A DNA stretch of 64,000 nucleotides. It comes from Candidatus Faecalibacterium faecigallinarum (lineage in GTDB: Bacteria; Bacillota; Clostridia; Oscillospirales; Ruminococcaceae). A model generated the notes under the pieces. The model worked only from the letters and a program-made list of their open reading frames with translations, searched no databases and had not been told where the DNA came from. The stretch covers positions 25,631 through 89,630 of the forward strand of contig DWWN01000047.1 in assembly GCA_019119685.1 (NCBI GenBank), given 5' to 3'. Each line of letters begins with the position of its first letter. Position 1 is the stretch's first letter. Below are positions 5,389 through 64,000 of this stretch, one piece after another. The translations under genes were made by a program, and so were the position numbers.

Positions 5389-5550
5389 TTGGCAGTTTCG
5401 ACAGTTTTTCCACGGGACGCGGCGCTTCTGTTGCCGAAAGTGCAATACACAAAAGCGCCTTTTGGGGGCGGCCGCCGCGGCCGGACTGTCCGCCTGGGGC
5501 AGCACACTGTCTCTGTCCCGCGGATGCAGGCCCGGGCCTCAGGGCGCCGC

Positions 5551-8094
5551 TCAGTCGGTGATGACGCCTTCGGTGTCCACCTGGCTGGAGACGATGCCGC
5601 CGCTGTGGTCGTAGTTGCAGGTGGCGGGCAGGTCGTCGGCCTTGTAGTAGCCGGTGGCGCGGCCGGGGCAGCCCGGGCCGGCCAGCAGGCCGCTCTGGGT
5701 GCAGTAGGAGCGCTGGACCACGCCTTCCGCCATGGGGAATTCCCTGGTCTCATACCCCTCCTGGACGGTGTTCATCAGGGCCCGCCACGCTTCGACGCAG
5801 GTGCGGGTCCTGGCCTGGCTGCCCAGGGTCAGGGTCATGTCGTAGGGGGAGTCGTAACCCCACCAGACGGCGGTCACATAGTATGGGGTGCCGCCCACGA
5901 ACGACAGGTCGCGCTCGTCGGTGGCGGTACCCGTCTTGCCGAAGGACCGCATATTGCCCGCCGTGGGGTACCGGCCGCCCGCCGTGCCCACGCTGCTGTA
6001 CAGGACGTTCTGCAGCAGCTGGTTCATGATGGAGGCGGTCTGGGGGGTCAGGGCCTGGTAGCTGGTGGCGTTGTTTTCCAGATAGATGTTGCCGTCCCGG
6101 TCCAGCACACGGGTGTAAAGGTGGGGGGTGGTGTACTGGCCGTCGTAGAAGATCTGGAACGCCGCCGCCAGGTCCATGGGTGTGACGCCGTGGGTCTGGC
6201 TGCCCATGACCAGGGGGGCAAGGCCCACATCGTTGACCGGGTCAAGGGTGTCCAGCTGCAGGGTGTTGTAAAGGAAGTTGAAGATGGTGTTCGCCCCCAC
6301 CAGGTCGCCCACCCGGGCGGCGATGGTGTTCAGGGAGCGGGCCAGGCCGTTCCACAGGGGGACGTCGGTATTGTCGCCGTAGTTGCCGCCGTAGTTCTTG
6401 GGCCAGCTGCGCCAGGCGTTGGGGTAGGCCCGCAGCGCCTCGTCCGACAGGCCCGACAGGCCGTTGCGGCGGCAGTAGTCATCGTCCCGGATCACCATGT
6501 CGCTCTTCAGGTAGAGGGGGGAGTTGTTCAGCATGGTGGACCAGTTGACCAGCCCGTACTCGATGCCCAGCGCGTAGGCGCCGATGGGCTTGATGGCTGA
6601 GCCGGTCTGCCTTGTCACGCTGTAGGCGCGGTTCAACGTCAGGTCGCGGGTCTTTTCGCCCAGGCCGCCCACCATGGCCACCACGTTGCCGTCGTAGTCC
6701 AGTGTGACCATGGCGGCCTGGGTGCGCACGTTGCGGTAATAGGTGACGGTGCCGTCCTCCGCCGTGGTGGTCTTGAGGGTGCCGTCGGCGTTGTAGACGG
6801 GCACGTCGTCCTCCGACAGGCTGGACACCGGTTCTTCGTGCCAGCCAGCCGGGAAGTACTGGTCGTTCGTGTTGAGCATCAGCTCTTCCATCTGGGCCTG
6901 GATCTTGGGGTTGACGGTGGCCTCGATGGTAAAGCCGCCGGTGTACAGCATCTGCTGGGCCGCGGACTCGGTGATGCCCTCCTTCTCCATGATGTCCTGC
7001 ACCACTTCCTCAAAGAGGGCGTCGGTGAAGTAGGAGTTGTTGGTGGCGGTGGTCCTGGAGGTGTCCTCCTCGGCCAGGACCAGCGGCTGGGCCGCGGCGT
7101 CGCGGTATACCTCCTCCGAGATGACCCCTTCCTGCCACATATTATAAAGGATATAGTTGCGGCGGTTGATGAGGTTCTCGGGGTTGGTGCGGGGGTTGTA
7201 GTTGGTGGGGTTTTTGGTGATGGAGGCAATGGTCGCGCATTCCCACAGGGTCAGCTGGCTGACCTCCTTGCCAAAATATTCCAGCGAGGCCGTCTGCACG
7301 CCCTGGATGGTGCCGGTAAAGCTGATGGTGTTCAGGTAGGCTTCCAGGATGGTCTCCTTGGAGTAGTTGCGGTAGAGGGTATAGGCGCGGTAGATCTCGC
7401 GCAGCTTGCGCAGCGCGCCCTCGATGCCGCTGGCGCTGTCGTCATCGGTCAGGTTCTTGATGAGCTGCTGCTCGATGGTGGACGCGCCCTGCTTGGAGCT
7501 GTAGATGGGCACGATATACTCGTTGATCATCGCGCCCACCGTCCGCTTGAGGTTGAAGCCGGGCTCCGAGTAAAAGTCCTTGTCCTCGGTGCAGATAAAG
7601 GCGTACTGCAGATACTGGGGGATCTGTTCCAGGTCCACCCACATCCGGTGGCTGTTGGAGGAGCGCAGGGTGGCGTATTCGATCTGCGCGCCGGTGTCGG
7701 GGTCGGTGGCCACCACCACGCTGGACTGGCTCAGCTCGATCTGGTCCAGGTTGAGCAGGTCGCCGTCGTTGGCCGTGGCCTGCACCACATAAAACACCAT
7801 GCACACCGCCAGCGCGCACCCCGCCATCACCCCCACGCAGAACAGGGTGGCAAAGATGCGGAAGAGCGCCCGCAGGACCGGATGCTTTGGCTTTTCCTTT
7901 TCAGGCTTTTGCTTTTTGGGGCCGCGGCCGCCCTGGGGTGCGCCGGCATGGCCTGTCCCCCGGCCGCCGCCGGAGGACGGGGGCGGCGCGGACTCCCGTC
8001 TGCTGCGGGTGGTGTCCACCATGCGGTGCCGCGGCGCCGCGGCGCTGTGAGCACCCGCGCCGTCGCTGCGGTGGATGCGCCTCATTTCATTCAT
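5551..8094 (-). CDS. Class A penicillin-binding protein (transglycosylase/transpeptidase, PBP1A-like)
   Basis: GT51 motifs (ICTEDKDFYSEPGF, STIEQQLIKNL) and transpeptidase motifs (RQTGSAIKPIGAY, FGKTGTA). Confidence 0.93.
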   Translation of the reverse strand: MNEMRRIHRSDGAGAHSAAAPRHRMVDTTRSRRESAPPPSSGGGRGTGHAGAPQGGRGPKKQKPEKEKPKHPVLRALFRIFATLFCVGVMAGCALAVCMVFYVVQATANDGDLLNLDQIELSQSSVVVATDPDTGAQIEYATLRSSNSHRMWVDLEQIPQYLQYAFICTEDKDFYSEPGFNLKRTVGAMINEYIVPIYSSKQGASTIEQQLIKNLTDDDSASGIEGALRKLREIYRAYTLYRNYSKETILEAYLNTISFTGTIQGVQTASLEYFGKEVSQLTLWECATIASITKNPTNYNPRTNPENLINRRNYILYNMWQEGVISEEVYRDAAAQPLVLAEEDTSRTTATNNSYFTDALFEEVVQDIMEKEGITESAAQQMLYTGGFTIEATVNPKIQAQMEELMLNTNDQYFPAGWHEEPVSSLSEDDVPVYNADGTLKTTTAEDGTVTYYRNVRTQAAMVTLDYDGNVVAMVGGLGEKTRDLTLNRAYSVTRQTGSAIKPIGAYALGIEYGLVNWSTMLNNSPLYLKSDMVIRDDDYCRRNGLSGLSDEALRAYPNAWRSWPKNYGGNYGDNTDVPLWNGLARSLNTIAARVGDLVGANTIFNFLYNTLQLDTLDPVNDVGLAPLVMGSQTHGVTPMDLAAAFQIFYDGQYTTPHLYTRVLDRDGNIYLENNATSYQALTPQTASIMNQLLQNVLYSSVGTAGGRYPTAGNMRSFGKTGTATDERDLSFVGGTPYYVTAVWWGYDSPYDMTLTLGSQARTRTCVEAWRALMNTVQEGYETREFPMAEGVVQRSYCTQSGLLAGPGCPGRATGYYKADDLPATCNYDHSGGIVSSQVDTEGVITD

Positions 8095-8819: not shown

Positions 8820-9491
8820 ATGTCCAAAACCTATCTCATCACCGGCGCGACCTCGCCGCTGGGGCTGGCCTTGATGGGCCGGCTGCTGCCCGCCCTGGAG
8901 GAGGGCGACCTGATCCTGGCCCAGGGCTGCGGCGACCTTGCCCGGCTGGCCGGGCTGTGCCAGGCCAGGCCCGGCTTCATCCGCCCTTACGATGCGGATT
9001 TCACCCAGCCGCTGGCGGTCCGCGCCTTCCTCAGCGACCTGACCGACACCTACCCCACCCCCACCCACCTGGTCCATCTGGCCGGGCTGCGCCCCATCGA
9101 AGCGCCTTACGCCCACTTTGACGAGGAGCGCTTTGTCCAGGAGCGGGCCGTCACGCTGGACAGCGCCCTGGTGCTGTGCAAGGCCATCCTGCCCAAAATG
9201 GCCCAGGCGGGCTTTGGCCGGGTGGTCTTTCTGGACAGCCGGGCCTCCACCCGCGCCGTCTCGGCCAACATCCTGCAGGGCGCTTTGAACGGGCTGGCCC
9301 TTTCCCTGGCCGCCGAGTACGCTTCCGCCGGCGTCACCGTCAACTGCATCGCCCCCGGCCCGATGGCCTCCGATGCCGAGGCGGACGCCGCCGCCTTCAC
9401 CCCCGACCGGGCCGCCGCCCTGCTCGGCTTTTTGCTCAGCGAGGACGCCGGCCCCCTCACCGGCGCCACCCTGCCGGCAGGTCTGTTCTGA
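8820..9491 (+). CDS. SDR family oxidoreductase
   Basis: Rossmann start YLITGATSPLGLALMG; VNCIAPGPM motif. Confidence 0.85.
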   Translation: MSKTYLITGATSPLGLALMGRLLPALEEGDLILAQGCGDLARLAGLCQARPGFIRPYDADFTQPLAVRAFLSDLTDTYPTPTHLVHLAGLRPIEAPYAHFDEERFVQERAVTLDSALVLCKAILPKMAQAGFGRVVFLDSRASTRAVSANILQGALNGLALSLAAEYASAGVTVNCIAPGPMASDAEADAAAFTPDRAAALLGFLLSEDAGPLTGATLPAGLF

Positions 9492-9494
9492 GAT

Positions 9495-9781
9495 CCTTTA
9501 GGGGGAACCCATTTCTGCGCGCAGTCGCGCGGCAGAAATTCCTTCCCCCTAACTCTCTTGCGCTTAGCCGGTTTTCGCGGCGCGCGAGCGCTTGCGAAAA
9601 TCGGAGCGCTGCGCCAGCGGCGGCTCGCTGTTTCGTCCACTGGACGCGCTTCACCGCCGCTGCCCCTGGGGACAAAATTTGGCGCTGACCCGCGCACTCG
9701 CCGCAAAGCGGCTCGCACACTCTCAGCGCCAAATTTCCCTGGTTGTGTCCCGGCCGTACGCGCATGTCGTCCGGCCGGGAC
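9495..9781 (+). repeat. Structured dispersed repeat, copy B (long form)
   Basis: Near-identical inverted copy at 10092-10376, shorter copy at 63830+. Hairpins 9498-9552, 9675-9736 (14/14 bp), 9747-9781; starts 3-4 nt after SDR stop, ends hairpin + GTTTT. Confidence 0.9.
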
Positions 9782-9793
9782 GTTTTGCAATGT

Positions 9794-9910
9794 TCACCCA
9801 TTTAATTCTTCCATGGCTTCGCGGACGGTGTCGGCAGAGAAGAGGAATGCCCCGCCCCTGCTGTACACTTCCACATGGCCGCCAACGTACCGGATCTCAT
9901 AGTCACTCAT
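9794..9910 (-). CDS. 38-aa small ORF of unknown function
   Basis: MSDYEIRYVGGHVEVYSRGGAFLFSADTVREAMEELNG; SD GAGAGGAG upstream; lies between repeat copies B and A; absent from supplied ORF track (too short). Confidence 0.5.
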   Translation of the reverse strand: MSDYEIRYVGGHVEVYSRGGAFLFSADTVREAMEELNG

Positions 9911-9969
9911 GCTCTGCCGCTCCTCTCTGTCTTGTCTGCGGGAAGGGGTCCTTCCCCTTCCCTCTGTAG

Positions 9970-9995
9970 ATAGGATAGCAGAAACAATATCCTAT
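9970..9995. promoter_or_regulatory. Candidate operator: perfect 8-bp inverted repeat
   Basis: ATAGGATA-N10-TATCCTAT in AT-rich stretch upstream of the 38-aa ORF. Confidence 0.4.
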
Positions 9996-10038
9996 AATTT
10001 GTACTTTGAAAAGTTTTTTGCAGTTTTTGCGCAAAAAA

Positions 10039-10064
10039 TTCGCCCCCGCCAGGGCGGGAGCGAA
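10039..10064 (-). terminator. Intrinsic terminator (minus strand)
   Basis: TTCGCTCCCGCCCTGGCGGGGGCGAA followed by TTTTTT on the minus strand. Confidence 0.6.
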
Positions 10065-10091
10065 AAGAGATCCGTTCAGACTGTTAAAAAA

Positions 10092-10376
10092 GTCCCGTCC
10101 AGCCGACATGTGCGGATGGACGGGACACCGACAGGGAAATTCAGCGCCGAGAGTGTGCGAGCCGCCTTTGCGGCGAGTGCGCGGTTCGGCGATGAATTTT
10201 GTTCCCAGGGGCAGCGGCGGTGAAGCGCGTCCAGTGGACGAAACAGCGAGCCGCCGCTGGCGCAGCGCTCCGATTTTCGCAAGCGCTCGCGCGCCGCGAA
10301 AACCGGCTAAGCGCAAGAGAGTTAGGGGGAGGAATTTCTGCCGCGCGGCTGCGCGCAGAAATGGGTCCCCCCTAAA
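10092..10376 (-). repeat. Structured dispersed repeat, copy A (long form)
   Basis: Same modules as copy B in opposite orientation; on the minus strand follows the CBS gene stop and ends with hairpin 10126-10092 + TTTTTT. Confidence 0.9.
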
Positions 10377-10397
10377 GCGTGTCGGCAGACACGCTAT

Positions 10398-63829: not shown

Positions 63830-64000
63830 GTCCCGCCCGGACGACATGTGCGTACGGGCGGGACACATACAGGGAAATTTGCCGCTGAGAGTGTGCGAGG
63901 CCGCCAGGCCGAGTGCATGGTTCAGCGGCAAATTTTGTCCCCAGGGGAATATTAGGGGGAAGGAATTTCTGTCGCGCGACTGCGCGCAGAAATGGGTTCC
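63830..64000 (-). repeat. Structured dispersed repeat, copy C (short form, truncated by window end)
   Basis: Hairpin 63830-63864 and perfect 14-bp stem 63875-63935, then TTAGGGGGAAGGAATTTCTG...CAGAAATGGGTTCC; ~115-nt central module of A/B absent. Confidence 0.88.

What the first reader, a model, noticed from the sequence alone, without database searches (positions are those of the whole stretch)
9495..10376. Dispersed structured element with covarying hairpins (candidate undescribed RNA/DNA repeat family)
Three copies: B 9495-9781, A 10092-10376 (inverted), C 63830-64000+. Reading all as H1-first, the terminal hairpin is GTCCCGTCCA-gCCGacatgtgCGGa-TGGACGGGAC (A), GTCCCGGCCG-gACGacatgcgCGTa-CGGCCGGGAC (B), GTCCCGCCCG-gACGacatgtgCGTa-CGGGCGGGAC (C). 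Pair 7 is T-A, G-C and C-G in the three copies, and pair 10 and an inner pair also change together, while loop ACATGYG is conserved. The second stem covaries too: AAATTCAGCGCCGA (A, one mismatch), AAATTTGGCGCTGA (B), AAATTTGCCGCTGA (C), each with its complement. Several independent compensatory changes imply selection on base pairing rather than on protein or primary sequence. I know of no named family matching this but could not search.
Basis: seen in the sequence. Interest (0 to 1): 0.85.

Follow-up and report, generated by a model that had tools for sequence, protein, structure and literature searches.

The report
Terminator-invading mobile element with folded core
The three repeats are copies of an unnamed small mobile DNA element, about 60 copies in this gut bacterium, that inserts into transcription terminators (often duplicating the whole terminator hairpin) and carries a core that folds on one strand and is conserved in several related genera.

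Summary
The copies lie where stated, and the own genome holds about 59. In a tree-aware test on 123 unique copies, all 11 covarying column pairs are stem pairs. No Rfam, phage or plasmid match was found.

Many copies end in imperfect inverted repeats, CAGNCTGTCAAAAA...TTTTTcGACAcgCTGA. They sit at intrinsic terminators and are often flanked by two copies of the entire terminator hairpin (20-42 bp); an unfilled site has one. An intact IS1182-family IS in a relative has matching ends and the same hairpin duplication. IS1182-family IS1272 is published as targeting stem-loops (PMC5678879).

What remains unexplained is the core, AGUGUGCGAG...CGAGUGCRYGGUU, plus an apical motif RYRUGYRC. These are shared by elements in several genera whose other hairpins differ. 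In H1 and H2, stem changes go to G.T far more often than to A.C on one strand only (92 against 19); unpaired sites show no such bias. So one strand folds as RNA or ssDNA. New variant of a known kind.

The parts
10077..10092 (+). Left end of copy A, CAGACTGTTAAAAAAG; read on the - strand it supplies the T-run after H1
   Evidence: shared left end
10092..10126 (+). H1 of copy A, apical motif ACATGTGC
10134..10206 (+). H2 of copy A, containing the conserved core
10149..10187 (+). Core of copy A: GAGAGTGTGCGAG..CGAGTGCGCGGTTC (wobble helix, tandem G-A pairs)
   Evidence: covariance model R1
10212..10259 (+). Optional hairpin module alpha, inserted between H2 and H3
   Evidence: also occurs outside the element
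10262..10319 (+). Optional hairpin module beta
10322..10375 (+). H3 of copy A
10376..10395 (+). Right-end hairpin AGCGTGTCGGCAGACACGCT of copy A
   Evidence: unfilled site in L109
9498..9552 (-). H3 of copy B, starting 7 bases after the stop codon (9489-9491) of the short-chain dehydrogenase gene
9553..9660 (-). Modules beta and alpha of copy B (approximate limits)
9669..9739 (-). H2 of copy B; core at 9687-9724
9747..9781 (-). H1 of copy B, followed by GTTTT on the + strand; no conserved left end
63830..63864 (+). H1 of copy C (no conserved left end)
63872..63941 (+). H2 of copy C; core at 63887-63923
63952..64000 (+). H3 of copy C, cut off by the contig end

Best explanation
A, B and C are copies of a non-autonomous mobile element (MITE) moved in trans by transposases of the IS1182 family. 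Inferred mechanism: the transposase recognises the CAG..TGTCAAAAA inverted ends and inserts the element at the foot of an intrinsic terminator hairpin, probably extruded as a cruciform. Because the strands are joined at the two feet, gap repair copies the whole hairpin, so the target duplication is as long as the hairpin. The element then lies in 3' untranslated regions, and in its commoner orientation H1 plus the T-run of its left end can act as a new terminator for the neighbouring gene. The H1/H2 core is kept because the element, or its transcript, folds on the H1-first strand. Whether that strand is RNA or ssDNA, and what binds it, is not shown.
For: Repeat and fold: 59 copies in the own genome, significant covariation, no Rfam match. 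Mobility, from unfilled sites: L043 has two copies of a terminator hairpin around the element, while L047/L091 have one hairpin and no element; window copy A is absent from the matching site of L109. Structure-defined duplication: in G061, 15 of 17 copies with both ends located have 20-36 bp duplicated hairpins; in G223, 4 of 5, and others are visible. In Faecalibacterium, 18 of 89 copies with the right-end hairpin score >=30, against 0.13% of mismatched flanks. Transposase: the intact IS1182-family IS in G190 (385 bits, 1496 bp) has ends CAGTTTGTCAAAAAA and is flanked by ACAGGTCCGGCATTTCAAATGCCGGACCTGT on both sides. IS1182-family pieces in G062, G063 and G223 end in CAG[TA]CTGTCAAA next to hairpins. 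Precedent: IS1272 (IS1182 family) targets stem-loops, and the authors' model predicts whole-stem-loop duplication if joined at the 5' feet (PMC5678879). Location: 120 of 126 copies with both neighbours called have at least one gene ending at the element; convergent sites are enriched over divergent ones (p=1.4e-7); tandem orientation 49 to 16 (p=5e-5). Strand-specific fold.
Against: No intact IS with exactly these ends was seen in a Faecalibacterium genome that carries the element. G020, which lacks the element, has an IS1182 with ends CAGACTGTCTAAC. G190, which has the matching intact IS, carries core copies with other ends. Most Faecalibacterium copies no longer show a clear hairpin duplication, and copy A shows none against its unfilled site. 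B and C lack recognisable left ends. A plain transposon interior need not have a conserved, strand-specific core, so the model does not explain that part. H3 shows no strand bias (9 G.T against 10 A.C).
Confidence: 0.82

Rival explanations
1. A functional non-coding RNA or 3'-UTR RNA element: the core is a protein- or ligand-binding RNA motif kept for the host, and mobility is secondary.
For: Core invariant in 40 diverse sequences including U.G and G.U wobble pairs; H1 motif RYRUGYRC in all families; the H1-first strand folds much more stably than its complement; G.T over A.C bias; T-run after H1 commoner in convergent than in tandem contexts (50 of 55 against 32 of 49, p=0.0017).
Against: Patchy presence (11 of 31 Faecalibacterium species) and copy numbers 0-76 are not those of a needed host RNA. 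The neighbouring gene is mostly transcribed on the other strand than the one that folds. No promoter or expression evidence.
Confidence: 0.25
2. A retroposon (bacterial SINE-like): the H1-first RNA is reverse transcribed by an enzyme in trans and inserted at terminator hairpins, as group IIC introns are.
For: Strand-specific fold; duplications of variable length; orientation bias in tandem contexts.
Against: Inverted ends at both sides, shared with an IS1182 DNA transposon that makes the same duplication. No group II intron match in the Rfam scans.
Confidence: 0.06
3. A REP/BIME-like repeat, moved by a RAYT (Y1) transposase, with ordinary REP roles (attenuation, mRNA protection).
For: High copy number, palindromes, 3'-end intergenic location.
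Against: Inverted ends and hairpin-long target duplications. RAYT genes were not searched for.
Confidence: 0.05
4. Covariation is a by-product of hairpin-templated repair (quasi-palindrome correction) or conversion between copies, not of selection on a folded strand.
For: Orthologous sites differ in whole stems at once, e.g. L057 against L221.
Against: Template repair would remove the conserved mismatches (G-A tandem in 35 and 37 of 40, wobble pairs in 40 of 40) and would not prefer G.T to A.C on one strand.
Confidence: 0.15

Closest known systems
IS1182-family insertion sequences (e.g. IS1272, PMC5678879)
   Same: Target stem-loops; an IS1182-family IS in G190 has matching ends and the same hairpin duplication
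   Different: No transposase gene, about 200-300 bp, carries the folded core; IS1272 is reported to replace the stem-loop rather than duplicate it
BOX, RUP and SPRITE repeats of pneumococcus (PMC3049150)
   Same: Small, modular, folded, mobile-looking, enriched between convergent genes; RUP is hypothesised to be moved by an IS in trans
   Different: Other sequence, host and ends; no terminator-hairpin duplication seen in the passages read
REP/BIME elements
   Same: Many intergenic palindromes near gene ends
   Different: Here inverted ends and long target duplications; no RAYT link tested
Group IIC introns
   Same: Prefer intrinsic terminator hairpins (from own knowledge; the papers listed were not read)
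   Different: No intron structure found by Rfam; DNA-transposon-like ends

Membership tests
MITE | short, non-coding, multi-copy | tested here: met
   178-650 bp, 59 copies
MITE | terminal inverted repeats | tested here: met
   CAGNCTGTCAAAAA / TTTTTcGACAcgCTGA in Faecalibacterium, G223 and (as variant) G061; imperfect, and missing in many old copies
MITE | target site duplication | tested here: met
   terminator hairpins; not seen at every copy
MITE | related autonomous IS | tested here: met
   ends of IS1182-family IS; not in the same genome with identical ends
IS1182-family-mobilised element | moved by an IS1182 transposase | not testable with these tools
   needs a transposition assay
IS1182-family-mobilised element | palindromic targets | tested here: met
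Rfam RNA family | score over gathering threshold | tested here: not met
REP/BIME | RAYT transposase in the genome | not tested
BOX element | boxA/boxB/boxC sequences | not tested
   only architecture compared, from PMC3049150
Group II intron | domain V/VI and intron RT | tested here: not met
   no Intron_gpII match; RT not searched

The most novel reading that the evidence does not exclude
The core is a new class of mobile structured RNA: a transcript of the H1-first strand whose H1 apical motif and wobble/G-A core are bound by the transposase or a host factor and are needed for, or guide, insertion at terminators; or it is a host-beneficial 3'-end RNA that spreads by hitch-hiking on IS1182-type ends.
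Probability: 0.3. Interest if true: 0.9.

Novelty: new variant of a known kind. Interest (0 to 1): 0.72.

Why it matters
It gives dozens of natural insertions, with some unfilled sites, in which a whole terminator hairpin of 20-42 bp is duplicated. This is an outcome drawn as a possibility in the published model of stem-loop-directed IS1182-type transposition (PMC5678879), so cruciform-guided insertion becomes directly testable. It also exposes an unnamed strand-specific folded motif conserved across several Oscillospirales genera, and a way in which gut bacteria such as Faecalibacterium have their gene ends rewritten many times per genome.

Tried and rejected
Known RNA family: rejected. Phage or plasmid origin: no matches. 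Autonomous IS found through inverted ends in G061 (C1:102060-104876) or G223: only MITE copies. IS1202-type fixed 24-29 bp duplication, recalled from memory: unlikely, because the length follows the hairpin (20-36 bp, 42 bp). A first gene caller picked wrong strands and was retrained; contexts are. The cross-family alignment A2 misaligned H1 and was not used for a model. The core was not found in the 390 other genomes drawn from the class.

Full report
What was checked. The window lies on contig 61 of a 2.06 Mb assembly. Records of the same genus that carry the repeat are named Faecalibacterium, mainly from poultry, so the genus is inferred to be Faecalibacterium. The repeat has 59 copies in this genome, 76 in G004, 65 in G013, 23 in G021 and fewer in others; 20 of 31 genomes of the genus have none.

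Anatomy, read H1 first. Left end CAGACTGTCAAAAAAG; H1, whose stem varies with compensation and whose tip RYRUGYRC does not; H2, whose outer and inner stems vary while the core AGUGUGC-GA-stem loop-GA-GUGCRY-GG-UU is nearly invariant; optional hairpin modules; H3; and a right-end hairpin AGCGTGTCG..CGACACGCTGA. Copies A and B are the long form. Copies without the two ends exist (B, C); many of these abut a stop codon.

Covariation and strand. A tree-aware null gave 11 significant pairs, all in stems. In single changes from Watson-Crick pairs, H2 went to G.T 63 times and to A.C 10 times, H1 29 and 9, H3 9 and 10. Unpaired positions showed no matching bias (96 against 111). This says that the H1-first strand of H1 and H2 folds as a single strand. 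It does not say RNA or ssDNA. The invariant wobble and tandem G-A pairs look more like RNA (inference). Limits: home-made test, parsimony on one tree, and likely exchange between copies.

Wider family. A covariance model of the core found it in 6 of 394 genomes of the order, in 4 genera of 2 families, and in none of the 390 other genomes drawn from the class. A DNA pattern also found it in other Oscillospiraceae assemblies (G061, G062, G063). In G061 and G223 the flanking hairpins are quite different in sequence, but the core, the H1 tip and the kind of ends are the same.

Insertion at terminators. In 90 Faecalibacterium copies, 13 had flanking direct repeats of 24-42 bp scoring far above mismatched flanks, each containing a terminator-like hairpin. 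Unfilled sites confirm insertion: L043 against L047/L091 (two hairpins against one) and window copy A against L109. In G061 15 of 17 copies and in G223 4 of 5 have such duplications, 20-36 bp, following the hairpin; a few pairs are inverted relative to each other (L145, L345; L311 by eye). The variable, hairpin-bound length argues for a structure-guided target (inference).

Transposase. Searching for IS1182-family transposases (a lead from memory that this family has long, variable duplications) found an intact one in G190 whose IS has ends CAGTTTGTCAAAAAA and sits between two copies of a complete terminator hairpin. Pieces in G062, G063 and G223 end in CAG[TA]CTGTCAAA beside hairpins. Wan et al. 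[quoted passage not shown] The exact partner in the element-bearing Faecalibacterium was not found: the IS1182 copies examined there have other ends, and the own genome's copy carries a stop and was not matched to these ends.

Context. Of 126 copies with both neighbours called, 55 lie between convergent genes, 65 between tandem genes and 6 between divergent ones. In tandem contexts the H3 side faces the upstream gene 49 times against 16. The T-run after H1 is commoner in convergent than in tandem contexts (p=0.0017). Gene calls are from a simple codon model and are approximate.

Conclusion. Shown: repeat, covariation, strand bias, insertion, hairpin duplication, IS with matching ends. Inferred: movement by IS1182 transposase, cruciform target, terminator function. 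Open: what the conserved core does.

Noticed in passing
window 10212-10319 and 9553-9660; L079, L096, L104, L107, L109, L121: The alpha and beta hairpin modules inside the long form also occur on their own and in arrays elsewhere, with conserved inner motifs (CGTCCNGYGGACGAARCAG) and varying outer stems; present in 10 of 46 genomes searched, all same genus. Possibly a second structured repeat family.
   Followed up: partly
L079 about 7031-7531, L109 about 5515-6015: An alpha-beta pair sits inside another MITE-like element with ends TAGGGCGTATCTGAAAACTC (seen at both ends in L079).
   Followed up: no
window 9498-9781 against L109: The same gene-end site holds copies in opposite orientation in two species, apparently independent insertions.
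   Followed up: partly
window 9794-9910, minus strand: Small open frame of about 38 codons (MSDYEIRYVGGHVEVYTSGAGAFLFSADTVREAMEELNG) between copies B and A; a similar stretch is present in L109.
   Followed up: no
window 63952-64000: The contig ends inside copy C; many contigs of this and related assemblies end in copies of the element, so copy numbers are probably underestimates.
   Followed up: no
G000:C50:25470-26915 (L371): IS1182-family transposase of the own genome with one in-frame TAG.
   Followed up: no
L290, L301, L063, L135, L064: Non-Faecalibacterium elements carry a further conserved hairpin before H1 (GCCTCGCAGAGTT, then a stem with loop around CCGCAG) that Faecalibacterium lacks.
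   Followed up: partly
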